Shown: positions 1-14,496 of the stretch, one piece after another
How the letters are laid out: every line of letters begins with the position of its first letter
How positions within the stretch are numbered: position 1 is the first letter of the stretch
Notes under the pieces: model-generated
The model's input: the letters and a program-made list of their open reading frames with translations, nothing else
Databases searched by the model: none
What the model was told of the DNA's origin: nothing
Program-made: the position numbers and the translations under genes
Source: Planctomycetota bacterium
GTDB taxonomy: Bacteria; Planctomycetota; Planctomycetia; Pirellulales; Pirellulaceae
Assembly (NCBI GenBank): GCA_963204995.1
Contig: CAUJKL010001071.1
Span: forward strand, 1 to 33,557
Length of the DNA stretch: 33,557 bases
Direction of reading: 5' to 3'

Positions 1-77
1 CCCCGCGCACCATGAAGGCGGGGTTACAAGATGCAATCTACAGAGGCGGGGTAAGAAGCGGGATAGCGGCGGGGTCA

Positions 78-99
78 AGTCGAGTCAAATAACTCGACT
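78..99. repeat. Perfect 8-bp inverted repeat (AGTCGAGT-CAAATA-ACTCGACT) downstream of the 135-650 gene; possible stem-loop
   Basis: Arms read directly at 78-85 and 92-99. No T-run follows on the minus strand, so a terminator role is unproven. Confidence 0.5.
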
Positions 100-134
100 C
101 GCGCGCCGATTAAGCGGGCTGGTTAATCTAAGCC

Positions 135-650
135 CTAGGACATGTCACCCCAGCGGTCGGCAAATAGCGGCTCGCTGGCCACTGGACTGAGTAAGACCAA
201 CGCCAAGACATCGGCAACTTCCTCAATCGCACCAGTCGTTCGCTCGAAGTGTTTCTCACCTTCTTCGGTATAGTTGTCTCGGCTTCCGCGTAGCCAGCGG
301 CCCAACTCGTATGGTGAGAAATGGTAAGCGAATTTTCCAAGCCACTTCAATGGTGGATAAATCCTAGCGACCTCCGTCAACTGATCGGGGACTTTGTTTC
401 GCAGACGCGGGTCGTCTTCAATTTTGCCGATATCGGCCTTGCTAATCGGGGAAGCAAGCCGCTTTGCCAGTGCTTCGGCTAAATACACGTTGCGTTGGGC
501 CGAATTTGTCGTAACTACAACGTTCGGTGTTCCCGACTCCTGGTTAACTTGAAGCGAATGGATCTCCGACTCCTGGATGCCGAGGCACGACGCGATCTCG
601 GGTTTGAGTTCTCTGGCAGCTTGTGCGATTCCGGCTGGGACGGGTGGCAT
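135..650 (-). CDS. Conserved-looking hypothetical protein, 171 aa
   Basis: ORF with ATG start and a GGAGAG Shine-Dalgarno-like sequence just upstream (minus strand). Last gene of a same-strand cluster. Family not recognised. Confidence 0.6.
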   Translation of the reverse strand: MPPVPAGIAQAARELKPEIASCLGIQESEIHSLQVNQESGTPNVVVTTNSAQRNVYLAEALAKRLASPISKADIGKIEDDPRLRNKVPDQLTEVARIYPPLKWLGKFAYHFSPYELGRWLRGSRDNYTEEGEKHFERTTGAIEEVADVLALVLLSPVASEPLFADRWGDMS

Positions 651-832
651 GACAACTCTCCGGCGAATTGGTTTGATCTACCTAGTTGATTGAAGGCAGT
701 TCGCCGCGATCCATTGGGGACAATGAGGACTACTTTGATTTGCGAACGACTGCAAGTGATTTCTCAAACACACTTTGCGTTGTTGACGAAATTTCTCCTT
801 TTCCTGCCTGCTGGCTGAGAGTACCGCGATTA

Positions 833-2170
833 TCAAGACCTTTGACCGTGCGAACATACGGTGCAATTTTCATCAGCTCCCACGATTCCGCTTTCCACTT
901 CCCAACTACCGCCGATCTGCCAGCGGAGGCGGTGCCAGATGCTGCCGGGCAGGTCGCCAGCGAGCAGATCGAGCCAGGATTGTATCCCAGTGGCGACGGC
1001 CATGCTATTTACCGTGATCAGCGAACCAAGTCGGCCAGCGGCATGCCAGGGTTGTGACCCTCGTAGCGGCAAAGCACCTGGCGGAGCCCAGTTCTCGTAT
1101 TCGGCGGCTTCGAGATCACCTAGACCTCCGACACAACGTACACAGCCCTCACCGGGTAACAGCAGACGAACATCTGCGGCTATTACGCGCTGGCCGTCGT
1201 CGCCGGTACGTACGCCCGTCCCAATGTCCAAATGGGGAATCAGTTGCTGACGTGCCATCCTGGCAGCGCGCAAGCGCGGGCCGTCTTGATCGACGCACGT
1301 GACAACGAGATCGGCGTCTTCCAGAGCTGGTTCTGACAACTTCACGCCGAAACGCCGCGGCAAAACTGTCGCGGCGAGTTCAGGTCGAAACTCCACAAGC
1401 CGCCGCCCCAGCGTGACCGCCTTGTTGGACCCGATATCTTCTGGCGTGGCCAGGAACATGCCATCCAGGTTGTGCGGTTCGATCGTGTCCCCGTCCAACA
1501 ACGTTAACCGCCGCACACCCAACGCTGTAAACATGGTAGCGGCCAGCGTTCCTGCTCGCGAACATCCGATGAGATTCACGGTGGCTTTCCGCACGCGATC
1601 GTGCGTGGCTCGCCCACCTACTGCCTCGATCGTCCGAGTCCAGCGAAGGGCGTCCTCGGCAGCCTCGGTGGCGTCACTGATCTGGTCCAGCTCCAGCATA
1701 TTGGCACCGATGACGCAAAAGCGTGCTAAGGGCTGCACGACGCCGCGTTCCACGGACCATCCGCACCATCCGGCTCGGTCGTCGTCGAGGCCCACAAGCA
1801 ATATCACACACAACTGCGCAAAACGCGGCTTGAGTCGAGAGATCCAGTCGTCGGGTGTCGCCGGAGCCGATCCGTTTGGTAGAGCAATTGCCAGCCAACT
1901 TGCCAGTGGTGGGAAATCTTGCCCAACGGTGCCGATACTTTGCACCTTCGGCTGACTCGCTACCAGCCGTCCACGAACGCCGCCTTGCCGTTGCAGTTGC
2001 ATCACGGCCATCCGCGTTGGGTTTGCAGACAGCGGGCGAACGACGTTTGACCAGTCAGAACTTGCCATGACGACTTCAAATCTGGATTGACAAACGGTCA
2101 TGTGGGTTCTCGTGGAAAAGGCTTCGTGACCAACTTCCAACAGGCTGCTTGAGCGACTGTGATGAGTCAT
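833..2170 (-). CDS. ThiF/E1-like (ubiquitin-activating-type) Rossmann protein with N-terminal JAB-like region and CxxC pairs
   Basis: ATVNLIGCSRAGTLAATMFTALGVRRLTLLDGDTIEPHNLDG matches the ThiF nucleotide-binding pattern; later 'GCVRC' and 'NCTVC' look like Zn ribbons. ATG at 2170 overlaps the upstream TGA (ATGA), so this start is preferred over 2209. Confidence 0.8.
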   Translation of the reverse strand: MTHHSRSSSLLEVGHEAFSTRTHMTVCQSRFEVVMASSDWSNVVRPLSANPTRMAVMQLQRQGGVRGRLVASQPKVQSIGTVGQDFPPLASWLAIALPNGSAPATPDDWISRLKPRFAQLCVILLVGLDDDRAGWCGWSVERGVVQPLARFCVIGANMLELDQISDATEAAEDALRWTRTIEAVGGRATHDRVRKATVNLIGCSRAGTLAATMFTALGVRRLTLLDGDTIEPHNLDGMFLATPEDIGSNKAVTLGRRLVEFRPELAATVLPRRFGVKLSEPALEDADLVVTCVDQDGPRLRAARMARQQLIPHLDIGTGVRTGDDGQRVIAADVRLLLPGEGCVRCVGGLGDLEAAEYENWAPPGALPLRGSQPWHAAGRLGSLITVNSMAVATGIQSWLDLLAGDLPGSIWHRLRWQIGGSWEVESGIVGADENCTVCSHGQRS

Positions 2171-2403
2171 GCGTCGAAGCGTGAAGAGAATCTGAAGCGA
2201 GTAACACACCGCTCAGGCTCGCGTGGCAAGTCCCGAAGTTGCTGAATTATGATGGCCACATCTGCCCAATCGAAATCCAGCTCAGGATTGGCAGCGTGAC
2301 GGACCAGGGCCCGCAGCACCTCGCGTCTATTTCGGTCGTTGAAGACGAAGTAGTAACTTTCTTCGCTCTTCAGCAGGCCACATACATAGATGTTTGACTG
2401 CAT
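2167..2403 (-). CDS. Small hypothetical protein, 78 aa (MQSNIYVCGLLKSEESYYFVFND...)
   Basis: Protein-like composition from ATG at 2403; stop overlaps the ThiF-like start as ATGA, which suggests translational coupling. Longer 188-aa ORF not supported. Confidence 0.6.
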   Translation of the reverse strand: MQSNIYVCGLLKSEESYYFVFNDRNRREVLRALVRHAANPELDFDWADVAIIIQQLRDLPREPERCVTRFRFSSRFDA

Positions 2404-2682
2404 TCCATCTTTCCTGCTTTGGCTGTAAGGGATCGCGAACCGACGTCGCGCGGCGCGACTGGCGGTTACTCTTAGGAAAGGCAGTTCGCTGGACTGCGAG
2501 AGCGTAAAGCTATGAACGTCCGTAGGGCTGACAACAGGATTGCCCCGCAACCGACAGAGCGTGCGTGAAACCCTGAACTCGGCAGTGTGAAAGTCCGACC
2601 GAAATCCTGCGCAGCACAACGGAATTGTTTCCCGGACGCGACCAGGGGCGGACCCCGACGGTGAGCTGCGCAGGCTACGGCT

Positions 2683-2712
2683 CCAGCGGTCGGCTCCGCC
2701 TACGACCGCTGG
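2683..2712. repeat. Perfect 10-bp-stem inverted repeat (CCAGCGGTCG-10 nt-CGACCGCTGG) just after the FGE-like gene stop
   Basis: Arms at 2683-2692 and 2703-2712, 18 bp beyond the TGA at 2730-2732. Confidence 0.8.
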
Positions 2713-2729
2713 GCCTCCGCCTCGCTGGC

Positions 2730-4427
2730 TCACACTGGCTCTGCCGGAACTGCGGCCAAGCGGAACCCGCGGTACCTGCGCCGACTGCCGGGCAAGTTCC
2801 CGGACCGGTAGGCCGAACGGCAGTACTCGCCGTAGTTGATCCAGCTACCACCGCGGAGGACCCGGAACGAGGCCCGTATAGGGCCGGCAGGGTTCAGCCG
2901 TGGCAAGGTCCGGTAATAGTCCGCGCCATACCAGTCGTGGCACCATTCCCAAACATTGCCGTGCATCTGATGGAAGCCCCAAACGTTGGCGGGAATACGC
3001 TCGCCATCCTCGCGAACTCCGCAAACGTCCAGCGTGTGTCCGCTACGCCAAACTTCCGTCAAAAACGCGTGTAAACGTTCGCGGTCATCCGGCCAAAGAT
3101 ACTCGCCGTTGTAGTTGCAGTACGCCAAGTCAATCTTCGTGCCATCGCTCCCGGCATCCCACGTAAACGGCGTGTCCCGGCCGCAGCGACACGCATACTC
3201 CCAGCGAGCTTCCGTGGGCAATTCGATCTCACACTCCACACCACCAAGTTTAATCAAGCCAAGCCACTTCGCGTAGCACCAGGCATCAAACCAACTCACG
3301 TTCACAACCGGATGATTGTCCGTATTCGATACCTTGTCCGTAAACTCACGACGATCAAAGTGACGCACATCAAAACGCTCGTATTTAACATTCGTCACAC
3401 AAAATCGATGCAAGTAGTAAGCAGATAACTCCACAGGATGCGCGGGATTATCCTGGCTCTTCCCGCTGCCATCCCAGTCAGGAGCCTCGCCATCCGGAGC
3501 TCCCATCGTGAATTTCACGTTGACAGCCTCTTCATGCTGGCCACGACCTAACGAGATGAAGCCGCCGTCGTCTTCATACGTAAACTCCCGGCAGAAATGA
3601 TCGCGTGCTTCCGTGTCTTCCATCCGGTCCCACGTGAGATAGATGAACTCCGTCGCTCGGATCACCCGCCCTTGCTCGTCCCGTGGTGCATTGGGATGCA
3701 CGACGTCATACAGCGGTGCGAACAGCGCCTGCCAACGAATTAAGTCGATCCCTTCGCGGGGCATCTCCGCAAGCAGTCGCCAGAATTCGGCGTACGCTTC
3801 GTTCTGTGCAAACAGCGGATCGGATACCCAGGCTTGCATTCGCACGCGGTCGTCGTCGCTGGCCCACCGGCCTGCCCAATAAGCCGCGAAGAAAGCTTGT
3901 GTCGTAATATCGGTGAACTGTACTCGCTCCGTCGATTCGCTAAACAGGAAATACTTCAATCCGTGGGAGTCCATCGCCTTCAGCCGTCGCCAATCCTCCC
4001 ATAAATGTTCGCCGTCGATCTGCTTGCCGCGAGAATTCAAATAGGCACCTGCTGATTCGAACCGGTCAAACGCGGAATTCACGAAGCCATCCACATCGCC
4101 GGTGATGGCAAACGCCGGTCCACCCGCCTCGCCGTCCGAGCAGTACATCTCAAAAGCGATCGCGCCCAGCAGGTCGCAGGCCAGCCGGACTTGCCACTTG
4201 CGTACTGCTCGCTCCTTCCGATTCAGCCGACCTTTCTTGTGCCAGCCGAAGTCGCGCGCTTCATCCGCCTTGAAGCCATCGTCCAACAAACCGGTTTCAT
4301 CGGCTGGATCGTCTGCCGCAAAGCGATGCACCTTCCACAGAACCGTTGCTTCAGAATCGTCTTCGTCGATCTGTCCCAGGTCCTCCAGACGGGCGATTAA
4401 CCGCGCGTAGCGCGGGATGCGGGACAT
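2730..4427 (-). CDS. FGE-sulfatase/C-type-lectin-fold (formylglycine-generating-enzyme-like) protein with helical N-terminal region; candidate DGR variable protein
   Basis: NHPVVNVSWFDAWCYAKWLG, LPTEARWEYACRCG, GNVWEWCHDWYG and RVLRGGSWINYGEYCRSAYRSGN..YRGFRLA are diagnostic FGE-sulfatase motifs. Track ORF begins at a TTG (4484); first ATG is at 4427. Confidence 0.9.
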   Translation of the reverse strand: MSRIPRYARLIARLEDLGQIDEDDSEATVLWKVHRFAADDPADETGLLDDGFKADEARDFGWHKKGRLNRKERAVRKWQVRLACDLLGAIAFEMYCSDGEAGGPAFAITGDVDGFVNSAFDRFESAGAYLNSRGKQIDGEHLWEDWRRLKAMDSHGLKYFLFSESTERVQFTDITTQAFFAAYWAGRWASDDDRVRMQAWVSDPLFAQNEAYAEFWRLLAEMPREGIDLIRWQALFAPLYDVVHPNAPRDEQGRVIRATEFIYLTWDRMEDTEARDHFCREFTYEDDGGFISLGRGQHEEAVNVKFTMGAPDGEAPDWDGSGKSQDNPAHPVELSAYYLHRFCVTNVKYERFDVRHFDRREFTDKVSNTDNHPVVNVSWFDAWCYAKWLGLIKLGGVECEIELPTEARWEYACRCGRDTPFTWDAGSDGTKIDLAYCNYNGEYLWPDDRERLHAFLTEVWRSGHTLDVCGVREDGERIPANVWGFHQMHGNVWEWCHDWYGADYYRTLPRLNPAGPIRASFRVLRGGSWINYGEYCRSAYRSGNLPGSRRRYRGFRLAAVPAEPV

Positions 4428-4555
4428 GCGACGGGCCGCGTTCCCAATGCGATCGTACTTGTGTGGACGAACAAAGAGAGACAAAGTGGTGGATCCAAAG
4501 CACAGGAGGTTGATTCAGTTGGTGGTTCGTCAAGAATATCGCGCATCGTTGACAT

Positions 4556-5467
4556 CTACCACCAGTTACCGGGAAACAAGTAGCGTAAGACTCCGAGCGC
4601 CGCAGCCGTCGAGGCCAAGCCGGCTTGGAATCGAGATAAACCGAGCGTTAAACGTGGCGAGGCAGCCATCAATGCACCGGATTTAGTTTCCGAATGGAAC
4701 AGCTTCGCTTCTTCATGAGTTGCTGTAATCGCCAAGTCCCAAAACAGTTTCGTGTTCCGGAAAAAGTCAGCCGGAATGAACACCAAGCCCATTGTGCGGG
4801 GATAGCCAAACGGATTCTGGCTGCCGATGCGTTCGCCCCAATTCTCCAGCCCAATGAACCAGCGTCTCCCTTGATGGTGAAAGTAGCCAACCAGAATAAA
4901 GCTGTGGCCGCCTTTGTAGTCGTCACTCAGCGGAAGCGGACGGACACCCGTGAACAGGGATTCTGGCAGAAGCCATTCCTCCGGCAAACCGACTCCGAGG
5001 ATCAGGACGCGTCCCTTCAGCTTGAGAGCTTCCGACCCGTAGAGCAACAGGCACATCAAGTCGATTGTGTCCGGCTCGCCGATCAAGGGGCGGAGGCTGA
5101 CAAACGTCTCGATTCTACGCTTCTTGGCGTCGGCAATCGCCGCGTTATCAGGTTTGACGTAGCGACTGTCGCAAAAGTTTGTCTCGGGATAAAGTTGTTC
5201 CGTGCAGATCCCGCGTTCGCAAGCGCCCTGCAAGACGACTGCGGGCCAAGTCCCAGTCGGAGGAATGGGATAGTCACGTTTCTGCATCGCATATTCCCAA
5301 GCAAACAAGCCGCTGAGGTGCCGATCGCAGATGTTCAGTTGTACTTCCGTCGCATTGCGACAAGCGTGCCCCACACAATTTGGGCCACGCTGTGCAATCA
5401 CCGGCTTGTAGCGGAACAAGTCCAGGTGGTCAAACTGATGCGGCAAGACGTGCGAGTGGCTCGCCAA
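4556..5467 (-). CDS. Papain-like (C1 family) cysteine peptidase
   Basis: Q/C motif 'QRGPNCVGHACRNATE', His motif 'GGHSFILVGY', Asn motif 'LENWGERIG' in the right order. Start is TTG and uncertain. Confidence 0.75.
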   Translation of the reverse strand: MASHSHVLPHQFDHLDLFRYKPVIAQRGPNCVGHACRNATEVQLNICDRHLSGLFAWEYAMQKRDYPIPPTGTWPAVVLQGACERGICTEQLYPETNFCDSRYVKPDNAAIADAKKRRIETFVSLRPLIGEPDTIDLMCLLLYGSEALKLKGRVLILGVGLPEEWLLPESLFTGVRPLPLSDDYKGGHSFILVGYFHHQGRRWFIGLENWGERIGSQNPFGYPRTMGLVFIPADFFRNTKLFWDLAITATHEEAKLFHSETKSGALMAASPRLTLGLSRFQAGLASTAAALGVLRYLFPGNWW

Positions 5468-5787
5468 AAGTTGGCGATCGGTGGGTTGTCGAAAGCCAAC
5501 GCGCGATGATCAGGAGCCAACATGCCGCCGAGCGGTGGAATCGCAACTGGAGCTGCTGCAAGTGATGGATCGGATAGCGGAATGAGCTTCTCTAATGCAG
5601 CAAGAATGCGGGCTAGGTCCACTTCCGTAATGCCAGCGAGTTCACGGAGCTTTGTTCGTAGTGATACGTTCGTTGCCATCTCACGCAGTTGAAGCATGGT
5701 CATCCCATGCGAACGCACAAAGCGACGCAGACTGCGCGGAAATGAGTGCGGAGTAACGCCGGGTCGTCGGAGCTTGCTCAATCGCAC
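5398..5787 (-). CDS. Small helical protein B with 'AAPVAIPPLGGMLAP' motif; likely paralogue of the next upstream gene
   Basis: GTG start at 5787 overlaps the stop of the upstream gene (alternative ATG at 5703). C-terminus overlaps the peptidase ORF by about 70 bp. Confidence 0.5.
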   Translation of the reverse strand: MRLSKLRRPGVTPHSFPRSLRRFVRSHGMTMLQLREMATNVSLRTKLRELAGITEVDLARILAALEKLIPLSDPSLAAAPVAIPPLGGMLAPDHRALAFDNPPIANFWRATRTSCRISLTTWTCSATSR

Positions 5788-6110
5788 GGCTCGTCCCCTT
5801 CTTTACTAGGCTCGGAGTGCCGCTCGTCTTCTGCACGCTGGGTAGGAGGTATCAGTCCGAATGGCGGAATTGCGGGGGCTTCCATGCCGGCAAACGAATC
5901 GCCAACGAGTTCGCGGGCGGCAATGACAAAGTCCGCCACATCTTGTTGTGAACAGTCCAGCAGCGCGGCCATTGCCGTGGGTCGCGTCTCTGCCATCGCC
6001 GTAAACGTCTCGATGAAGCAGATGCCTCGCTCTACAAGGGCCGCGTGCTGAAGTTCCGAAAGCTGAGCAAGCTCTCGAAGGTCGGTTAGTGGAGTTGGTT
6101 CATTCGGCAT
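5778..6110 (-). CDS. Small helical protein A with 'APAIPPFGLIPP' motif
   Basis: ATG at 6110 preceded by AGAGGA-like SD; helix-hairpin-like 'LRELAQLSELQHAALVERGICFIETFTAMAETRPTAMAALLDCSQQDVADFVIAARELV'. Confidence 0.65.
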   Translation of the reverse strand: MPNEPTPLTDLRELAQLSELQHAALVERGICFIETFTAMAETRPTAMAALLDCSQQDVADFVIAARELVGDSFAGMEAPAIPPFGLIPPTQRAEDERHSEPSKEGDEPCD

Positions 6111-6131
6111 TACTATTGTCCTCTGTGGTCT

Positions 6132-6680
6132 TCAGTGCGGTTGCAGGTTGATCAGTACGACCTTTAGGTCAAGCTCATGCACAAGCTCGCCATTCACCGG
6201 CCACCACTTGGCCGGCAATTCGCGGGCAAGTTTCACGGCCAGTTCGACGCGAGCCTCATAATTCTTCGTCGCTGTCACGGCCAGCCACCGCGTCTGGTAG
6301 TCCTCAGCTGTCTCTTCCTCTACGGCCCGTCTCAGTTCGGCCAAGAAATCGCTCGGTAACATCTGTTGGGAATATTGTTCCTCCGTGACCTTGGCAGACG
6401 CTGACTCGCCGGGCGACGTGATGGTGTTTTCGTTCGGCGGACCTTCAGATTCAGACAGCGAGTTCGTTATTCGAGTCTTTAACCAATGGCAGCCCTGCTC
6501 CACGAGTTGGAGAGCCTTGAGAGAGTTTTTCTCGACAAAGGGCCGCCGTTCAGTAGGGTCCAGCACTAACAGCCAGATCACAAGTAGCAACAGCGGCGTA
6601 GTGAGAAGTGAAGCAATGTATCGAATCGGTTTGGTAAAAAAGAACATCAGCTTGGGTGCCTCCCGTCTCTCGCAATTCAA
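6132..6680 (-). CDS. Single-pass membrane protein, hypothetical
   Basis: One hydrophobic segment 'YIASLLTTPLLLLVIWLLVLDP' near the N-terminus; 21 bp upstream of protein A on the same strand. Start may be internal. Confidence 0.6.
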   Translation of the reverse strand: MNCERREAPKLMFFFTKPIRYIASLLTTPLLLLVIWLLVLDPTERRPFVEKNSLKALQLVEQGCHWLKTRITNSLSESEGPPNENTITSPGESASAKVTEEQYSQQMLPSDFLAELRRAVEEETAEDYQTRWLAVTATKNYEARVELAVKLARELPAKWWPVNGELVHELDLKVVLINLQPH

Positions 6681-7095: not shown

Positions 7096-8526
7096 TCACG
7101 CCAACAGTTCGTCGACCACGCGTGCGGGGAGGACGCCGGTTAGTCGTTGATCGAGGCCTTGGTATTTGTACGCGAACCGTTCGTGATCAAAACCGAGCAG
7201 GTGCAGGACGGTGGCGTGGAAGTCGCGGATGTGGAGCGGGTCGCGTATGATGTTGTACGAGAAGTCGTCCGTTTCTCCGTAAATCGTCCCGCCTTTTGCA
7301 CCACCCCCGGCCATCCACATGCTGAAGCAACGCGGGTGATGATCGCGGCCGTAGTTTTCCTTCGAGAGAGTGCCTTGCGTGTAAATCGTGCGACCGAATT
7401 CGCCGCCCCAGATGATCAGCGTATCGTCCAACATACCGCGCTGCTTGAGGTCTTCGAGCAACGCATAACATGGCTGATCAATGTCTTTGCATTGACTAGG
7501 CATGCGACCGGCGACATTGGAATGATGGTCCCAGTTGTTGTGATAGACTTGCACGAAGCGCACACCGCGCTCGATGAGTCGACGTGCCATCAACGCGGTA
7601 TTCGCGAAACTGCCAGGCTTCTTCGCCTCGTCTCCGTACAGGTCGAAGATATGCTGTGGCTCGCTGCTGAAATCCGTCAGCTCCGGCACGCTGGACTGCA
7701 TGCGGAAGGCCAGTTCGTATTGTTGTATCCGCGTGTGCGTTTCTGGATCGCCAAGCGTTTCGTAATTGATCTCGTTCAACTTATTGAGGCCGTCGATCGA
7801 TCGTTTGCGAATCGCATCGGGAACACCGGGCGGATTATTGATGTAGAGAATCGGATCGCCCTTGCTGCGGAACGATACGCCCGCGTACTCGCCAGGCAAA
7901 TAACCGGCGCTCCACAGTCGCGAAGAAATGGCTTGCTCCTGGTCGCGGTTGCTCGGTGTTGCCACCAGGACGACGAATGCAGGCAGATTCTCGTTCATGG
8001 TGCCCAGACCATAAGAAGCCCATGCACCAAGGCAAGGCCGACCGGTGACTTGATTACCGGTCTGCATGGCGGCGATCGCGGGCTCGTGGTTGATCGCTTC
8101 GGTGTTCAGGCTCCGCATCCAGCAGATTTCGTCGGCCTTCTTTTCCAGGTTTGGCAGCAACTCGGTGTTCATCCACAAACCACACTCACCGGCCTGGCTG
8201 AACTTGAACTTGGAGGGGGCGACGGGAAAACGCGCCTGACCGCTGGTCATCGTGGTCAGCCGCTGGCCCATCCGGATCGATTCGGGCAGCTCTTTGTCGT
8301 ACCACTCTTGCATCACCGGCTTGTAATCGAACAGGTCCATTTGTGCCGGGCCACCGACCATGTGCAGATAGATCACGCGCTTCGCTTTGGGCGCGAACTG
8401 AGGGCCGGGAGCTTTCGATTCGGATGCCGTTACGAATGATTCCCCAAGCAACGAAGCGAGTGCCGCACCGCCCAAGAGGTGTTTGCCATTGGTGAAGAAT
8501 TGACGGCGAGATTGGAGAGTGTTCAT
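7096..8526 (-). CDS. DUF1501 family protein (sulfatase-like, Tat-type N-terminus)
   Basis: RRQFFTNGKHLLGGAALASLLG signal; HMVGGPAQMDLFDYKP, WGGEFGRTIYTQG and GRDHHPRCFSMWMAGGG are DUF1501 hallmarks. Start taken at the ATG of MNTLQSRRQFF. Confidence 0.93.
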   Translation of the reverse strand: MNTLQSRRQFFTNGKHLLGGAALASLLGESFVTASESKAPGPQFAPKAKRVIYLHMVGGPAQMDLFDYKPVMQEWYDKELPESIRMGQRLTTMTSGQARFPVAPSKFKFSQAGECGLWMNTELLPNLEKKADEICWMRSLNTEAINHEPAIAAMQTGNQVTGRPCLGAWASYGLGTMNENLPAFVVLVATPSNRDQEQAISSRLWSAGYLPGEYAGVSFRSKGDPILYINNPPGVPDAIRKRSIDGLNKLNEINYETLGDPETHTRIQQYELAFRMQSSVPELTDFSSEPQHIFDLYGDEAKKPGSFANTALMARRLIERGVRFVQVYHNNWDHHSNVAGRMPSQCKDIDQPCYALLEDLKQRGMLDDTLIIWGGEFGRTIYTQGTLSKENYGRDHHPRCFSMWMAGGGAKGGTIYGETDDFSYNIIRDPLHIRDFHATVLHLLGFDHERFAYKYQGLDQRLTGVLPARVVDELLA

Positions 8527-8534
8527 GGTTTTAT

Positions 8535-8630
8535 GTTCAAGGTTCAAGGTTCAAGGTTCAAGGTTTCAGGTTTCAGGTTTCAGGTTTCAGGTTTCAGGTT
8601 TCAGGTTTCAGGTTTCAGGTTTCAGGTTTC
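8535..8630. repeat. Heptanucleotide tandem repeat: 4x GTTCAAG then 9x GTTTCAG
   Basis: Units counted by eye; period exactly 7 bp, sited between the DUF1501 gene start and the S23 gene. Confidence 0.97.
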
Positions 8631-9032
8631 GATTATTTGGGTGATGGGTATTTTTGGCCTTTTAGGTCGGTCTTTTTTTAGATAGGAGATGAAACCGTCG
8701 ATGAGGCGATTGTTCTCGATGCAACGGTCGTGTAGCTGCTGGAATTCTTCTTGTGTGATGTAGCTTTCGTCCAAGGCAACGTAGAGTTGCGATCGCACTT
8801 CGCCGCACGAACCTTTCGCGGTTGAAAGAAACTGAATGAACTCTCTGTTGCCACCACGTTCAAAGCCCTCGGCTATATTCGAGGTGATCGAAATTGCCGT
8901 GCGTCGTATCTGATCCTTCAGTGCAAGATCCCTGGCGAACTCGCCGCGTCGCGAGAAACGATAGACAGCTTGCGTCAGCTCTCGTCCCTTCTGCCACGCT
9001 TGGATGTCCTCGAATCGTTCAATCGTAGCCAT
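8622..9032 (-). CDS. Four-helix-bundle protein (23S rRNA intervening-sequence protein / S23 family)
   Basis: FEDIQAWQKGRELTQAVYRFSRRGEFARDLALKDQIRRTAISITSNIAEGFERGGNREFIQFLSTAKGSCGEVRSQLYVALDESYIT matches the family consensus. Confidence 0.92.
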   Translation of the reverse strand: MATIERFEDIQAWQKGRELTQAVYRFSRRGEFARDLALKDQIRRTAISITSNIAEGFERGGNREFIQFLSTAKGSCGEVRSQLYVALDESYITQEEFQQLHDRCIENNRLIDGFISYLKKDRPKRPKIPITQIIET

Positions 9033-9045
9033 GCAATCACATAAT

Positions 9046-9169
9046 TTTGAGATTTGAGATTTGAGATTTGAGATTTGAGATTTGAGATTTGAGATCTGAG
9101 ATCTGAGATCTGAGATCTGAGATCTGAGAATTGAGAATTGAGAATTGAGAATTGAGAATTGAGAATTGA
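9046..9169. repeat. Heptanucleotide tandem repeat: 7x TTTGAGA, 5x TCTGAGA, 5x ATTGAGA (+ partial)
   Basis: Units counted by eye; lies between the S23 start codon and the PSD1 gene stop; variant units occur in blocks. Confidence 0.97.
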
Positions 9170-9177
9170 ACCTGACA

Positions 9178-12100
9178 CTACTTATTTAACGCTTCGTCCA
9201 GATTAATGACTTCGTTGCAGATCATCGTCCACGTCGCGAGTTCGGTCACATCGAGCTTATCGTCGGCCTTCGATTCACCAACGGCAATCAACGCCTTGGC
9301 TTCATCCGGTCTTGATTGGTAGTAGGCGAGAAACGCTTCCTTATCTTCCAAGATAATGGCTTGCTCTCGCTCGTTCATCGGACGACCGAGCACGTGTTGG
9401 AAAATGTAGTCGATCGTCTTGGCAGTATCACCGCTGCTCGCTTTCAACGCGTTCTCCGCGAGGTGACGAGCAGCTTCAAAGAATTGCGGATCGTTCAGTG
9501 TGACTAGTGCCTGGAGCGGTGTGTTGGTCCGCTCGCGGCGGACGGTGCATACCTCGCGGCTGGGAGCGTTGAACGCATCGAGATTGGGGGGCGGTGCCAT
9601 GCGCTTCCAGAACGTGTAGAGCGTGCGGCGGTAGAGATTCTCGCCCGTGTCCTGCACATAGTTACGCGTATCGCCGCCGGGCAGCCCGACGACGTCCCAG
9701 ATTCCTTCCGGCTGATAGGGCCTGGTGCCCGCACCGTACATCTTCGGCGACAGCAAACCGCTCACCGCCAACACCTCGTCGCGGACCATTTCGGCATCCA
9801 TCCGGAATCGAGGGCCGCGTGAGAGCAGAGTATTGCTGCGATCCTGTTCAAGCTTCTCTGGCGTCGTGATCGCGGCTTGTCGGTACGTCGCGCTGGTCAA
9901 CATGAGCTTGAACATTCGCTTCACATCCCAGCCACTTTCACGGAACTCGACCGCCAGCCAGTCGAGCAGCTCCGGATGGCTCGGCATCGTCCCCATCACA
10001 CCGAAATCTTCCGGCGTCGTGACGATGCCTTGTCCGAACACTTCGCTCCAGAACCGATTCACCGTCACACGAGCGGTCAGCGGATTGGCAGGATCGACCA
10101 GCCATTGAGCTAAGCCTAGTCGGTTGTTCGGCGCACCCTCGGGCATGGGATGCATGGCGGCGGGCGTGGCGGCGTTCACCGGCTCACCGACCTTGTCATA
10201 TTCACCACGCATGAGAATATTAGCCATCGCCGGCGAATCCTTTCGCTCTTCCTGAATGTGCGTGACCGGGCTGCGAGCGCGAATCGTTTCACGCTCCGCT
10301 TCCAGATCGACGACGGCTTTGTTCAGCACCGGATATTCCGTGTCGCGAGTGGCCAGATAGTGATCGTACAGCGCGGTCTGTTGTTCCGGCGTGCGCTGCT
10401 CCGAAGCAATGGCCAGGATCGACCGCAGCGGGGCGAGATCGGCGATCGACTGGACCTCAGTAGCGCCAATCGCGCGACCATAGACTCGTACATCTTGAAT
10501 GGCACCGCCATCGAACACTTGCGTGTCGCTGCGTTGGCCAATGCGCAGCGATGTGCTGGTCCGAATCGACGCGTCCGGCTTGAGCGTGTTGTTCTCGACC
10601 TTGAGCGGCTCTTCCTTGCCATCGACATAGATTTTGATCCCCTCCGGCTTGCCGGAACCATCATAGGTCGCGAAGACATTTTGCCACTGGCCGGGATTGA
10701 GGACGGCGTTGTTGGTCACAACTTTGAGCGCGTTGCCCGGCCAGGAATCGACGAGGTGTACCGCGAGTGAACGTCCCTGTTGCCACAGATCCCAGCCGCG
10801 ATAATCGGCCTTCTCGTCCATCCGGGCGATGATGCCGCCGCTTTTGCTATCGCTTCCCGCCTTGATCCAGGCACCGTAGCTGAAACTCTGATTTCTTTCG
10901 AAGTCGCCGAGCGCGCCCAGATCGAACGTACCGCCAAGTTTCATTACCGGGGCCGAGCCAAGTTTTCCATCGGGGGTCCAAGTGACTTCACCGGTCGACT
11001 TGAAGTTTTCAGCGCTGTTGCAGGCGTTGGCCACTTCGTTGCCGGTGCCTTCATCGAGCGGCACGTGAACGACGAGCCCTTCGATCGGCAAGGCGTCGTC
11101 GAGCGATTCAATATTCGCGGAAGCCAGCCATTTTTCGAAGTCGCCGCGCGCATTCTGTTTACGCTCGTCGCGTTTTGCCGTCGCAGCCGCGATTTCGGCG
11201 GGCAGAGCGTTCCAGCGCGGACGGTCAGCCTCCGAGGGAACTTGCAGCACGGCGCTGCGTCCATCCTTGACGTTGCCATCTTTCGCGGGCTGTGTCGTAT
11301 TGCGGAAGAAAGCGGCGAGCGAATAGTAGTCTCGTTGCGTGAACGGATCGAACTTGTGGTCGTGACACTGGCCACAGTTTGTCGTTAGCCCGAGATACAC
11401 CCAGCCGAACGTCTGCACTCGGTCGACCGCATAGTTCGCCAAGTTTTCTTCATCGATCGTGCCGCCTTCGTTGGTCGTCATGTTACAGCGTTGGAAACCA
11501 GTGGCAATTAGCTGGTCCATCGTTGGATTGGGCAGCAGGTCGCCGGCGATTTGCTCGACGGTGAATTGGTCGAAGGGCTGATTTGCATTGAAGGCGCGGA
11601 TCACCCAGTCGCGATAGGGCCACATCTCGCGATAGTTGTCGAAGTGCATGCCGTGCGTATCGGCATACCGCGCCGCATCGAGCCAGTAACGGGCGCGATG
11701 CTCGCCCCACGCCGACGTTTTCATCAGCCGGTCGATCCAGTCGGACAACGCGTCGTCTTGACGCTGGTTGAAGTCGCTTACGAAGGCGGCCACATCTTCG
11801 GGCGACGGCGGAAGGCCCGTGATGTCGAGATGCAATCTGCGAAACAGCGTGTGGGCATCGGCTGGGGGTGCCGGTGACAAGCCGTTCGCTTCCAGCTTTG
11901 CCAGCACAAATCGGTCGATGACGTTCTTGACCCACGCTTCATTCTTTACCGTCGGCGGCTCAGGTTTTCGCGGAGCGATGAACGACCAATGAGCCTGATA
12001 ATCGGCACCCGTCGCGATCCATTGCTTGAGCAACTTCTTCTGTGCATCGGTCAGTTGTTTCTTGGTCTCGGGTGGCGGCATCACGAGTTCTGGGTCGCTG

Positions 12101-12441
12101 TCGTGAATTCGCTCGATCAATGAACTTTCGTCCGGTTTGCCTGGCGTGATGGCATCGAATTCAATGGCCGCATCTCGCTGATCGAGCCGCAGATCTGCCT
12201 TACGCGCCGCGCTGTCGGCTCCGTGACAGGCGAAACAGTTCTCCGCCAGAATCGGACGAATGTCTCGGTTGTATTCCAGCGGCTGATCGGCTCGTGCGCG
12301 TGAACCAAAAAGGGCGAGTGTCGACGACATCACGAACACAGCCACAAGGGGACAAGCTCGATCAAGTCTTGAATGCAGGGTCGTTGTCAAAGGAATCGCT
12401 CCATCGGGCGAAAGGCAGGGATGGTGTGAACAGAGTCGCAT
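9178..12441 (-). CDS. Planctomycete cytochrome C (PSCyt1)-DUF1549-LamG-DUF1553 protein
   Basis: NCFACHGAD haem-binding motif, DUF1549 (RYWLDAARYADTHGMHFDNYREMWPYRDW), LamG-like middle (YGAWIKAGSD, IYVDGKEEP), DUF1553 (NPLTARVTVNRFWSEVFGQGIV, RRTLYTFWKRMAPPPNLDAFNAPSREVCTVRRERTNTPLQALVTLNDPQF). Confidence 0.95.
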   Translation of the reverse strand: MRLCSHHPCLSPDGAIPLTTTLHSRLDRACPLVAVFVMSSTLALFGSRARADQPLEYNRDIRPILAENCFACHGADSAARKADLRLDQRDAAIEFDAITPGKPDESSLIERIHDSDPELVMPPPETKKQLTDAQKKLLKQWIATGADYQAHWSFIAPRKPEPPTVKNEAWVKNVIDRFVLAKLEANGLSPAPPADAHTLFRRLHLDITGLPPSPEDVAAFVSDFNQRQDDALSDWIDRLMKTSAWGEHRARYWLDAARYADTHGMHFDNYREMWPYRDWVIRAFNANQPFDQFTVEQIAGDLLPNPTMDQLIATGFQRCNMTTNEGGTIDEENLANYAVDRVQTFGWVYLGLTTNCGQCHDHKFDPFTQRDYYSLAAFFRNTTQPAKDGNVKDGRSAVLQVPSEADRPRWNALPAEIAAATAKRDERKQNARGDFEKWLASANIESLDDALPIEGLVVHVPLDEGTGNEVANACNSAENFKSTGEVTWTPDGKLGSAPVMKLGGTFDLGALGDFERNQSFSYGAWIKAGSDSKSGGIIARMDEKADYRGWDLWQQGRSLAVHLVDSWPGNALKVVTNNAVLNPGQWQNVFATYDGSGKPEGIKIYVDGKEEPLKVENNTLKPDASIRTSTSLRIGQRSDTQVFDGGAIQDVRVYGRAIGATEVQSIADLAPLRSILAIASEQRTPEQQTALYDHYLATRDTEYPVLNKAVVDLEAERETIRARSPVTHIQEERKDSPAMANILMRGEYDKVGEPVNAATPAAMHPMPEGAPNNRLGLAQWLVDPANPLTARVTVNRFWSEVFGQGIVTTPEDFGVMGTMPSHPELLDWLAVEFRESGWDVKRMFKLMLTSATYRQAAITTPEKLEQDRSNTLLSRGPRFRMDAEMVRDEVLAVSGLLSPKMYGAGTRPYQPEGIWDVVGLPGGDTRNYVQDTGENLYRRTLYTFWKRMAPPPNLDAFNAPSREVCTVRRERTNTPLQALVTLNDPQFFEAARHLAENALKASSGDTAKTIDYIFQHVLGRPMNEREQAIILEDKEAFLAYYQSRPDEAKALIAVGESKADDKLDVTELATWTMICNEVINLDEALNK

Positions 12442-12705
12442 GGGGTGGGCTCTAGAAGGAAATCGCCCGGCTCCATTTCAGTCGTAAACAGGTGGGGACC
12501 GCTAACTCGGTCAACAGGGTAGGGACGGAACGCGTTCCGCCATCGTTGACCACCGGTTATATTGTCCACCATTCGGCCCCGATTGTCCACTATTCCTCGT
12601 GTGGACATCTCCCTATGTGGACATCGGAGACCGAACTCCCGCCAACGTGTTACAATCAGTGCCGCAGCATGTTCCACCATTCGATGTCACGAAGGAGCGA
12701 TTGAC

Positions 12706-14496
12706 ATGACCGAGACCAACGACAGCGCGCTGGCGGCAATGCGGAACCTTTCCCCACGGCGCAATACGACGGCAGCCCATAACGTCGATCAGCTTGTGGC
12801 GGAACAACTCGGACATTTCGGGATCGATCCGGCGACCGATCACGGACGCGCGCTGGCCAGCGTTGCCCACCGATTGTACGAAGCCGGTGCCGATGCGGAA
12901 TCGCTATGGCGTTTGACGCAGCAGTCCATCGGTGGCCTCGACCGCTCCGACCGGATTGCTTACTTCAACGCCAAAAAGTTTCTCTCGTTTCAAACGGCGA
13001 AGCTGCTCGACATGCTGCAGAACCCGTTTCGTCGCAGCTATCAGTCGCTGGAGTTGAATTACCAAACACAGTCGGCCAAGGGACCGTACGCGGTGTTCGA
13101 TAATGTCACTGCAATATTTTCTGCTACGCCAGTCATCGCTCGCACCGCGACCTACGTCTACGCTTGTGCCGAATGGATCGAAGACGCCTTTCAAGGCAAA
13201 GAGTTGCTGTTGGAGATCTATTCGCGGCTGCTCAACCCAACGTCCGTGTCGCTGGCCAATTTCATCGTCGACATCGAGGCCGGTCCTTACGCCACCGAAT
13301 ACTTTGCCTGGAACTTCAACAGCGGGATGGCGGCTATCGACGGAGTCTTGTCCCATGTCCTGGGACGCGATGACGTCTTGATCAGCAGTCGCCACATCTA
13401 CGGCGGTGCTCATCAGTTGATTCACGATTGGTACGCCAAACCATCGAACCTGAGTGTCGGCGTCGAGACGTTTTCCGGGTACGGTGCGAGCGCTTTCGAA
13501 GCTTGCTGGCAACGCACTTCGCAGAAGTACGCCGATCGCTTCGCCGAGGGGCGCAAGGCGTACGTGTATATCGAGTCGCCCTGCAACCCACACGGCTACA
13601 CACTCGATGTCCCCGGGATCTGCCGCGCGGCACATGCCAACGGGCTGCGCGTGATTTTGGACGCCACGGTCGGCACGCCGTTTTTGATCCAACCACTGCA
13701 ACGTGACGATCCGGTCGAACGGCCCGATTTCGTGATCCACAGCTACACCAAGGATCTGTCCGGGACAGGTTCGACGATTGCCGGAGTGGTCATCGGCCGC
13801 AACCACGACATGTTCGTTCCCAAAGGTCAAACCTCCGGGGGCGTGGCGTGGAACGAAACGATGTTCTGGAATGTCTATTACGTGAAGGGAGCATTCCTGA
13901 ATGCCGATCAAGCCTTCGAGGTAATCCAAGGCATGCGGACCCTGGGCGTACGCATGTTGAACAAGTGCATCAATACCGAGATCCTCGCCCGCTTTTTCGA
14001 CTCGCATCCCAGCATTCGCGTGCATTGCAATGCGTTGCCTGATAACGAGAATTCGCCGCTGCGGGAGAAGCTGTTGTTTCTCGGCCTGCCGGCTCCGCTG
14101 TTCACGATCGATATCGAAGGCGTCCCGCGAGACATCTTCCAACGGTTTTTCGACTCGTTGGAGCCCACGTTCGCGCACATGATCAGCCTCGGCCAATCAA
14201 ACACGATCGTCAGTTGTCCGGCTTTGACGACGCATTCCGAGCTAGACGCAGCGGCATTAGCGGCCAGCGGGATCAGTCCGACCACGATTCGGCTCGCTAT
14301 CGGCAACGAGGATCCCAAGGACTTGATCGCGCAGTTCATCCAGTCGGCTAGACTGGCCATCGAGCCGCATGTGCCTGGGTTCTGCGACTCGTTTATGATA
14401 CCTGCGGAAATCGACAAGTTAGTCCACGATTGCTACGTCGACGGACATCGGCGCTATATCGAGTCCAAGGCCTCGATGGCCGAGTACCTCGCTTAA
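12706..14496 (+). CDS. PLP-dependent Cys/Met-metabolism (trans-sulfuration-type) enzyme with N-terminal extension
   Basis: YIESPCNPHGYTLDVPGICRAAHANGLRVILDATVGTPFLIQPL and HSYTKDLSGTGSTIAGVVIG (PLP lysine). AGGAG at about 12692 before ATG 12706. Confidence 0.85.
   Translation: MTETNDSALAAMRNLSPRRNTTAAHNVDQLVAEQLGHFGIDPATDHGRALASVAHRLYEAGADAESLWRLTQQSIGGLDRSDRIAYFNAKKFLSFQTAKLLDMLQNPFRRSYQSLELNYQTQSAKGPYAVFDNVTAIFSATPVIARTATYVYACAEWIEDAFQGKELLLEIYSRLLNPTSVSLANFIVDIEAGPYATEYFAWNFNSGMAAIDGVLSHVLGRDDVLISSRHIYGGAHQLIHDWYAKPSNLSVGVETFSGYGASAFEACWQRTSQKYADRFAEGRKAYVYIESPCNPHGYTLDVPGICRAAHANGLRVILDATVGTPFLIQPLQRDDPVERPDFVIHSYTKDLSGTGSTIAGVVIGRNHDMFVPKGQTSGGVAWNETMFWNVYYVKGAFLNADQAFEVIQGMRTLGVRMLNKCINTEILARFFDSHPSIRVHCNALPDNENSPLREKLLFLGLPAPLFTIDIEGVPRDIFQRFFDSLEPTFAHMISLGQSNTIVSCPALTTHSELDAAALAASGISPTTIRLAIGNEDPKDLIAQFIQSARLAIEPHVPGFCDSFMIPAEIDKLVHDCYVDGHRRYIESKASMAEYLA

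What the first reader, a model, noticed from the sequence alone, without database searches (positions are those of the whole stretch)
135..6680. Candidate multi-component accessory system: TM protein, twin small helical proteins, papain-like protease, FGE/CLec variable-like protein, 78-aa orphan, JAB-like/E1 protein, 171-aa orphan
Eight same-strand genes, several with overlapping or coupled junctions (A/B overlap, ATGA at 2167-2170), bring together a protease, a lectin-fold recognition module and an E1-like activating enzyme. Protease or Ubl-like effectors next to a potentially diversified ligand-binding domain are a recurring theme in bacterial conflict systems built around STAND/FGE modules. 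I do not know this exact combination. The rest of the window is ordinary planctomycete housekeeping and secreted proteins. The 326-bp gap at 2404-2729 means it could be two adjacent units rather than one operon.
Basis: partly seen in the sequence, partly recalled or inferred. Interest (0 to 1): 0.8.

Follow-up and report, generated by a model that had tools for sequence, protein, structure and literature searches.

The report
Hypermutated sensor with E1-like partner
Two of the eight genes, and a fragment of a third, belong to a little-known planctomycete gene family in which a self-hypermutating 'antigen-sensor' protein travels with a ubiquitin-activating-like enzyme whose predicted substrate is a tiny protein ending in aspartate; the copy in this window is incomplete, cut at one end by a repeated element.

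Summary
The eight minus-strand ORFs are real in outline, but they are not one eight-gene system. Genes with conserved linkage: P0007 (833-2170, JAB-fold+E1/ThiF), P0005 (2730-4484, FGE) and P0008 (135-650). Relatives of P0007 sit within ~10 kb of NACHT-FGE (STAND-FGE) genes in 12 of 20 loci, against 0 of 20 control ThiF loci. Three of those loci carry a complete diversity-generating retroelement (DGR): reverse transcriptase, template repeat, and variable repeats in the FGE gene changed almost only at template adenines. P0005's 3' end carries the same kind of variable repeat plus a downstream hairpin, and has two diverged sister copies in the same genome.

P0007's relatives are preceded by a small protein with an invariant C-terminal Asp, in the slot where control E1-like genes have Gly-Gly carriers. 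Its profile was found in 10 of 298 genomes, all ThiF-family-positive. I infer an adenylyltransferase that activates this peptide's C-terminus downstream of a diversified sensor.

P0005 lacks the NACHT half (separate genes in C458 and another genus). P0006 is a ubiquitous planctomycete protein. P0008 is the N-terminal stump of a ~550-aa protein cut by a repeated element. P0001-P0004 are (nearly) private. New variant of DGR/STAND-FGE conflict systems; the Asp-peptide/E1 module appears unreported.

The parts
833..2170 (-). P0007: JAB-fold (HxH metal motif absent) + ThiF/E1-like adenylyltransferase, 445 aa; no conserved catalytic cysteine; zinc CxxC...CxxC kept
   Evidence: Pfam ThiF 1.3e-22; 15-row family alignment; model pLDDT 83, pTM 0.84; Foldseek best match BubCD over the full length
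2730..4484 (-). P0005: C-terminal half (middle + FGE sensor) of a NACHT-FGE protein; the NACHT half is missing from this contig
   Evidence: Pfam FGE 2.5e-38; covers residues 311-857 of an 865-aa NACHT-FGE reference; MID/FGE profile hits
2750..2852 (-). predicted DGR variable repeat (VR) at the 3' end of P0005, with VR-type 3' anchor GGGTTCCGCTTGGCCGCAGTTCC
   Evidence: alignment with L061 template and VRs; variation among the three own-genome copies at 25/29 template-A columns vs 10/74 others, p=4.5e-12
2683..2712 (-). hairpin 3' of the VR: CCAGCGGTCG-TAGGCGGAGC-CGACCGCTGG (10-bp stem, 10-nt loop)
   Evidence: hairpin scan of the 3' flank
135..650 (-). P0008: N-terminal stump of a ~550-aa protein; its stop codon lies in the repeat at 1-141
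   Evidence: 31% identity to residues 7-178 of a 556-aa protein that heads a cl2-cl4 operon in G011; repeat
1..141 (.). end of a repeated (probably mobile) element that truncates P0008 and ends the contig
   Evidence: near-identical 107-146 bp at the starts of contigs C862, C12, C1043 and C507; 90% identical internal copy in C588
2167..2403 (-). P0006: 78-aa protein in the slot directly upstream of the E1-like gene; paralogue of a ubiquitous planctomycete small protein, not the Asp-peptide
   Evidence: 143 of 199 class genomes match; second copy in own contig C922; no match to the Asp-peptide profile
4556..5467 (-). P0004: papain-like cysteine peptidase candidate (C31, H188, N209), nearly private; possible variable effector
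   Evidence: motifs; weak PDB 3ois match; only weak homologues in 398 genomes
5398..5787 (-). P0003: small helical protein, true start uncertain
   Evidence: ORF; marginal similarity to P0002 (E=0.010); no relatives in the fetched loci
5778..6110 (-). P0002: small helical protein, nearly private
   Evidence: one borderline match in 199 genomes
6132..6680 (-). P0001: protein with one predicted N-terminal membrane helix, no relatives in the fetched loci
   Evidence: sequence

Best explanation
This is an incomplete copy of a planctomycete conflict-type system with two arms. Sensor arm: a STAND NTPase (NACHT) coupled to an FGE/C-type-lectin-fold domain whose 3' end is rewritten by a diversity-generating retroelement; in this genome's subfamily the protein is split into a NACHT half and a free FGE half, and P0005 is a free FGE half. 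Signal or tag arm: P0007, a JAB-fold+E1-like adenylyltransferase that (inferred) activates the C-terminal aspartate of a small charged peptide normally encoded next to it, as MccB, ThiF and MoeB activate the C-termini of MccA, ThiS and MoaD. Ligand binding by the hypervariable FGE domain would switch the STAND complex on; the activated peptide would be attached to, or released as, a signal or toxin; adjacent peptidases (papain-like here, trypsin or subtilisin at the other split copies) would act as effectors. Shown here by computation: co-occurrence, DGR repeats with adenine-specific change, the split NACHT/FGE, the Asp-ended peptide in the substrate slot, and the JAB-E1 fold. Inferred: adenylation of the Asp, immune function, peptidase as effector.
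For: P0007-family loci carry STAND-FGE genes in 12/20 vs 0/20 control ThiF loci, p=4.5e-5. DGR reverse transcriptases lie in L057, L061 and L064, with TR/VR pairs whose differences are 15/16, 16/19, 18/22 and 16/20 at template adenines. P0005's VR differs from its own-genome sisters at template-A columns: with C458 23/29 vs 10/74, with C800 7/29 vs 3/74, all three together 25/29 vs 10/74. The split falls at the same profile position (~165 of 194) in two genera. A small peptide family with invariant C-terminal Asp is found in 10/298 genomes, all ten of them among the 15 ThiF-family genomes (hypergeometric 2e-15). A small ORF ending in Asp lies directly upstream of the E1-like gene in 11/20 loci vs 0/20 controls, where several slots hold Gly-Gly-ended carriers. 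P0007 fold: BubCD, then ThiF, MccB, MoeB. Peptidases beside the split copies: trypsin-type (C800, C458), S8 (L035).
Against: The window itself lacks a reverse transcriptase, a template repeat, a NACHT half and the Asp-peptide. The own-genome template was not found; the one strong RT match (C113) is cut by a contig end and its neighbouring FGE gene has a different 3' anchor. P0006 in the peptide slot ends ...RFDA, not Asp. The E1-typical Arg after NL (NLxRQ in MoeB/UBA, from memory) is not kept in the family, so adenylation may be altered. Own-genome contamination is 7.25% and the assembly is fragmented. The peptide profile was built from P0007-family loci, which favours finding it there. No expression or phenotype data.
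Confidence: 0.6

Rival explanations
1. Remnant: the locus is a decaying piece of such a system (cut by a repeat, no NACHT half, no peptide) and no longer functions; P0001-P0004 and P0006 are unrelated neighbours.
For: P0008 is truncated by a repeated element; NACHT half, peptide and RT are absent from the window; P0006 is a ubiquitous family.
Against: P0005 and P0007 are full-length with family motifs intact. The genome holds exactly one family E1 gene and one Asp-peptide (C458), and a NACHT half in C458, so partners may act in trans or lie just past the repeat. VR differences among sisters suggest past DGR activity.
Confidence: 0.45
2. Ubiquitin-like conjugation system of the Bub/CBASS/FtsH-ternary kind: P0007 is an E1 that charges a ubiquitin-like protein via E2, with the JAB domain as deconjugase.
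For: BubCD is the best structural match over the full length; one relative locus (L034) also carries a second ThiF, an E2-like and a JAB gene.
Against: No conserved catalytic Cys outside the CxxC zinc pairs; HxH of JAMM absent from P0007 and not conserved; no Gly-Gly-ended carrier in the slot and no E2 relative in the other family loci.
Confidence: 0.1
3. Peptide natural product (RiPP): the Asp-ended peptide is a precursor processed by a MccB-type enzyme into a secreted or intracellular toxin; proximity to STAND-FGE genes reflects shared defence islands.
For: ThiF-like enzymes of RiPPs activate C-termini of short precursors, MccB without a thioester (review PMC12250964); small charged precursor; a carboxylate-amine ligase lies next to the E1 gene in L063.
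Against: No transporter or immunity gene noticed at the loci examined; the peptide is conserved over its charged C-terminal helix rather than having a variable core; linkage to STAND-FGE is too tight for chance islands.
Confidence: 0.2
4. Chance clustering: the genes are unrelated accessory genes in a variable region.
For: P0002 and P0004 are (nearly) private and P0006 is ubiquitous.
Against: 12/20 vs 0/20 co-occurrence of the core pair; P0008's only found homologue heads an operon of the same system components in G011.
Confidence: 0.05

Closest known systems
STAND NTPase-FGS conflict systems with DGR (Kaur et al. 2021, PMC8195603; PNAS 2024, PMC10907252)
   Same: NACHT or other STAND NTPase joined to an FGE/FGS domain, often diversified by a reverse transcriptase; peptidases as neighbours; proposed antigen sensing.
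   Different: Here a dedicated JAB-fold+E1-like gene, an Asp-ended peptide, sigma-70-like proteins and two uncharacterised proteins (cl2, cl4) accompany it; the NACHT and FGE halves can be split into separate genes. My term searches of these papers found no ThiF linkage.
Bub (bacterial ubiquitination-like) BubCD, JAB-E1 fusion (PDB 9ea4, 9ea5, 9eav)
   Same: Similar length (458 vs 445 aa), E1 region at the same position (from residue ~184) and full-length structural match (TM 0.65).
   Different: HxH motif absent from P0007; no BubA-like Ubl or BubB-like E2; substrate candidate is an Asp-ended helical peptide.
MccB/MccA and other ThiF-like adenylyltransferases acting on precursor peptides (PMC12250964)
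   Same: E1-fold enzyme without thioester cysteine, acting on the C-terminus of a short peptide encoded next to it (activity inferred here).
   Different: JAB-like N-terminal domain instead of the RRE peptide clamp; peptide of ~60-75 aa ending in Asp, linked to STAND-FGE sensors.
vWA-MoxR FtsH-ternary systems with Ubl conjugation (Kaur et al. 2020, PMC7159879)
   Same: Conflict system that couples NTPases, peptidase effectors and a Ubl-type activating enzyme in planctomycetes and others.
   Different: No vWA-MoxR pair, EAD or Ubl-E2 fusion was identified at the loci whose proteins I inspected.

Membership tests
DGR target (variable protein) | C-terminal variable repeat with differences concentrated at template adenines | tested here: met
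   25/29 template-A vs 10/74 other columns vary among window, C800 and C458, using the homologous L061 template as proxy
DGR target (variable protein) | Own template repeat in the same genome | tested here: inconclusive
   None found in the own assembly; the RT contig C113 ends inside the RT, where a template would follow
DGR target (variable protein) | Reverse transcriptase in the genome | tested here: met
   C113:1-939, 52% identical to the DGR RT of L064, beside an HRDC gene and a caspase-FGE gene; not adjacent to P0005
DGR target (variable protein) | Hairpin downstream of the variable repeat | tested here: met
   10-bp perfect stem at 2683-2712
STAND NTPase-FGS conflict system | FGE/FGS domain C-terminal to a STAND NTPase in one polypeptide | tested here: not met
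   P0005 lacks the NACHT part; the NACHT half is a separate gene in own contig C458 and in L035
STAND NTPase-FGS conflict system | EAD or effector domain fused to the NTPase N-terminus | not tested
   The NACHT half of this locus is not in the window
Canonical E1 (ubiquitin-type) | ThiF adenylation fold with conserved ATP-site residues | tested here: met
   Glycine-rich loop, D226/D228, K250, D294 and R179 invariant in 15 sequences; fold match. The Arg of NLxRQ is not kept
Canonical E1 (ubiquitin-type) | Catalytic cysteine for thioester transfer | tested here: not met
   Only the four zinc-type cysteines C343, C346, C436, C439 are invariant
Bub system (BubCD) | Active JAMM metal site (HxH...D) in the JAB domain | tested here: not met
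   No HxH in the first 185 residues of P0007 or of 11 other family members; 3 of 15 have an HxH, at unconserved positions
Bub system (BubCD) | Ubl (BubA) and E2-like (BubB) partners | tested here: not met
   No E2 relative in the family loci other than L034; Asp-ended peptide instead of Ubl
ThiF-like enzyme with precursor peptide (MccB type) | Short peptide encoded next to the enzyme with a conserved C-terminal residue | tested here: inconclusive
   Met for the family; not met in the window itself, where P0006 (...RFDA) occupies the slot
ThiF-like enzyme with precursor peptide (MccB type) | ATP-dependent modification of the peptide C-terminus | not testable with these tools
   needs biochemistry
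Papain family C1 peptidase (P0004) | Cys-His-Asn catalytic motifs in papain order | tested here: met
   C31, H188, N209 by sequence and PDB 3ois / L136 comparison
Papain family C1 peptidase (P0004) | Papain fold | tested here: inconclusive
   model failed, pLDDT 33

The most novel reading that the evidence does not exclude
A bacterial immune-like pathway in which a hypermutating NACHT-FGE sensor controls a new kind of protein tag: a short, non-ubiquitin-fold peptide whose C-terminal aspartate is activated by a JAB-fold E1-like enzyme whose JAB domain lacks the usual metal motif.
Probability: 0.35. Interest if true: 0.9.

Novelty: new variant of a known kind. Interest (0 to 1): 0.72.

Why it matters
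It ties together two themes usually studied apart: targeted hypermutation of antigen-sensor-like proteins and ubiquitin-type activating enzymes. The Asp-ended peptide gives a concrete, easily expressed two-gene pair with a sharp prediction (activation at the C-terminal Asp), and the L057, L061 and L064 loci give complete DGR examples in which sensor diversity can be counted from reads.

Tried and rejected
Eight-gene conserved system: rejected. Invertible-segment explanation for the split NACHT/FGE of L035: no convincing inverted repeats at the borders. P0006 as the missing Asp-peptide or a Ubl: rejected as homologue. P0004: plasmid search empty, structure model useless. Searching for the own template repeat with the window VR: only the two sister FGE genes and short conserved stretches. 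Phylum-wide sampling for the E1-like family gave one further genome besides the own, already known and of the same class. Literature searches found no paper that joins DGR-diversified STAND-FGE genes with ThiF/E1; most subscription papers and preprints are not in that library.
Full report
What was claimed and what is there. The window is one whole contig (G000:C1071, 33,557 bp) of a fragmented planctomycete genome (9.7 Mb, 1,093 contigs; 94% complete, 7% contamination). All eight minus-strand ORFs exist. Against Pfam, PADLOC and NCBIfam only P0005 (FGE, 2.5e-38) and P0007 (ThiF, 1.3e-22) have firm annotations.

Neighbourhood test. P0007 has full-length relatives in a minority of planctomycetes: 15 of 298 genomes of the class, plus further hits among 99 close relatives; a phylum-wide sample of 294 gave only the own genome and one already known genome of the same class. 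I fetched these loci and twenty control loci around other ThiF genes of the same lineages. A profile of the middle part of NACHT-FGE proteins hits 12 of 20 family loci and 0 of 20 controls (Fisher p=4.5e-5); four of the eight misses are contigs shorter than 8 kb. Several loci carry two or three NACHT-FGE genes around the E1-like gene. So the pair P0005/P0007 is a real, recurrent association.

The FGE gene is a DGR target. In L057, L061 and L064 a reverse transcriptase lies next to the NACHT-FGE gene (Pfam RVT_1 9.8e-23 for L057; relatives in L061 and L064; GNQTSQ/GSLTSQ-type motif). Template and variable repeats are present: 118, 126 and 140 nt, and differences fall at template adenines in 15/16 (L057), 16/19 (L061), 18/22 and 16/20 (two VRs of L064). 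P0005's 3' end aligns without gaps to the L061 template and VRs, has the VR-type 3' anchor GGGTTCCGCTTGGCCGCAGTTCC (the L061 template reads GCAGCCCC where VRs read GCAGTTCC), and is followed by a perfect 10-bp hairpin at 2683-2712, inside the '326-bp gap'. In the same genome two further FGE genes have homologous 3' ends: C800 (84% over 270 nt) and C458 (75%). Across the three copies 25 of 29 template-A columns vary against 10 of 74 others (p=4.5e-12). The own template was not found; the one strong RT match (C113:1-939, with an HRDC gene and a caspase-FGE gene) is cut by a contig end, and the FGE gene next to it has a different 3' anchor, so it may serve another target class.

A split STAND protein. 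P0005 aligns to residues 311-857 of an 865-aa NACHT-FGE reference: the NTPase is missing. This is not a private accident. In own contig C458 a NACHT-containing ORF (433-2460) and an FGE ORF (2400-4280) are adjacent and overlapping; C800 has a free FGE half; and in another genus (L035) the NACHT half (11082-11975, +) and FGE half (12255-14093, -) are separate genes on opposite strands. Both NACHT halves stop at the same profile position, about 165 of 194. Next to the split copies sit peptidases: trypsin-type (C800, C458), subtilase (L035), and the papain-like P0004 here. I read this as a sensor half that can be encoded apart from its NTPase; mechanism inferred.

The E1-like arm. Fifteen family members keep the glycine-rich loop, both aspartates (D226, D228), K250, D294, R179 and two CxxC pairs, but no other cysteine, so a thioester E1 mechanism is unlikely. 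The AlphaFold model (pLDDT 83, pTM 0.84) matches Citrobacter BubCD, a JAB-E1 fusion, over its whole length (E~1e-24, TM 0.65), followed by ThiF, MccB and MoeB. An HxH metal motif is absent from P0007 and not conserved in the family.

A small Asp-ended peptide. Clustering small ORFs revealed a family of ~60-75 aa peptides: Pro-rich N-terminus, charged helix, invariant C-terminal Asp (...LARLRAIQSFD...LARYD). It lies directly upstream of the E1-like gene (overlapping it by 4 nt in L034) or beside the NACHT-FGE gene. Its profile finds 10 of 298 genomes, and all ten are among the fifteen with the E1-like family (hypergeometric 2e-15; caveat: the profile was built from these loci). Loci without a recognisable homologue often still have an upstream small ORF ending in Asp (L038 MMANKD, L039 GRGD, L066 ANTD, L067 ASAD, L069 YHLD). 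Counting only the immediate upstream slot, 11 of 20 family loci have an Asp-ended small ORF against 0 of 20 controls, several of whose slots hold Gly-Gly-ended carriers such as ...LLSPISGG; background C-terminal Asp is 4.4%. This parallel is the main reason to propose the peptide's C-terminus as substrate. The own genome has one such peptide, in C458 (5807-6007), and one family E1 gene, in the window.

What does not belong, or is broken. P0006 is a member of a small-protein family present in 143 of 199 class genomes, with a second copy in own contig C922; it occupies the peptide slot but ends ...RFDA. P0008 is 31% identical to the N-terminus of a 556-aa protein in G011, where it heads a run of the cl2 and cl4 proteins that precede NACHT-FGE genes in other loci. 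Its stop codon lies within a repeat (window 1-141) that also begins contigs C862, C12, C1043 and C507. The gene is therefore a stump and the contig ends at the repeat; the missing cl2, cl4 and NACHT genes may lie beyond. P0004 has only two weak matches in 398 genomes and P0002 one borderline match in 199. P0001-P0003 have no relatives in the fetched loci.

Mechanism, with steps marked. Shown by computation: diversified FGE sensor, its association with STAND NTPases and with the JAB-E1 enzyme, Asp-ended peptide in the substrate slot. Inferred: ligand binding by the FGE domain triggers the STAND complex; the E1-like enzyme adenylates the peptide's Asp; the activated peptide is transferred to a target or becomes a signal/toxin; neighbouring peptidases execute. 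Some relatives lie near helicase/nuclease or restriction genes (L059 DUF4011/MTES_1575, L061 EcoEI_R), in line with a defence role. In one relative (L063) a YbdK-type carboxylate-amine ligase gene follows the E1 gene.

Compared with what is known. STAND-FGS genes with DGRs are described as putative antigen sensors (Kaur et al. 2021, PMC8195603; [quoted passage not shown] 2020, PMC7159879). I found no report joining DGR-diversified STAND-FGE genes with a JAB-fold E1-like gene and an Asp-ended peptide. I file it as a new variant of a known kind; the peptide/E1 module could turn out to be a new kind.

Noticed in passing
L063:10970-12337: YbdK/GCS2-type carboxylate-amine ligase gene directly after the E1-like gene in one relative; reminiscent of PafA-type ligation (analogy from memory).
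   Followed up: partly
L090 (G000:C113) 1-3174: Separate DGR-type cassette in the same genome: caspase-FGE protein, HRDC protein, reverse transcriptase cut at the contig end.
   Followed up: partly
L034:6065-9053: One relative locus additionally has a second ThiF gene, an E2-like gene and a JAB gene; the E2-like protein has a homologue in control locus L108.
   Followed up: partly
window 1-141: Repeat shared by the starts of at least four other contigs and one internal site; probably the end of an insertion sequence, transposase not identified.
   Followed up: partly
L035:2203-5349: Tubulin-like (Tubulin_2) 1048-aa protein beside the E1-like gene in G053.
   Followed up: no
L057:10706-12357 and L058:10227-11878: ECF-type sigma factor followed by an uncharacterised ~345-aa partner (possibly anti-sigma) within the family loci; sigma-70-like proteins recur in eight loci.
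   Followed up: partly
window 5778-6110: P0002 also happens to end in Asp (...DEPCD); probably coincidence.
   Followed up: no
window 8479-9178: Short repetitive reading frames (FRFQVSG..., SDLRSQI...) flank a possible four-helix-bundle protein gene (8622-9032).
   Followed up: no
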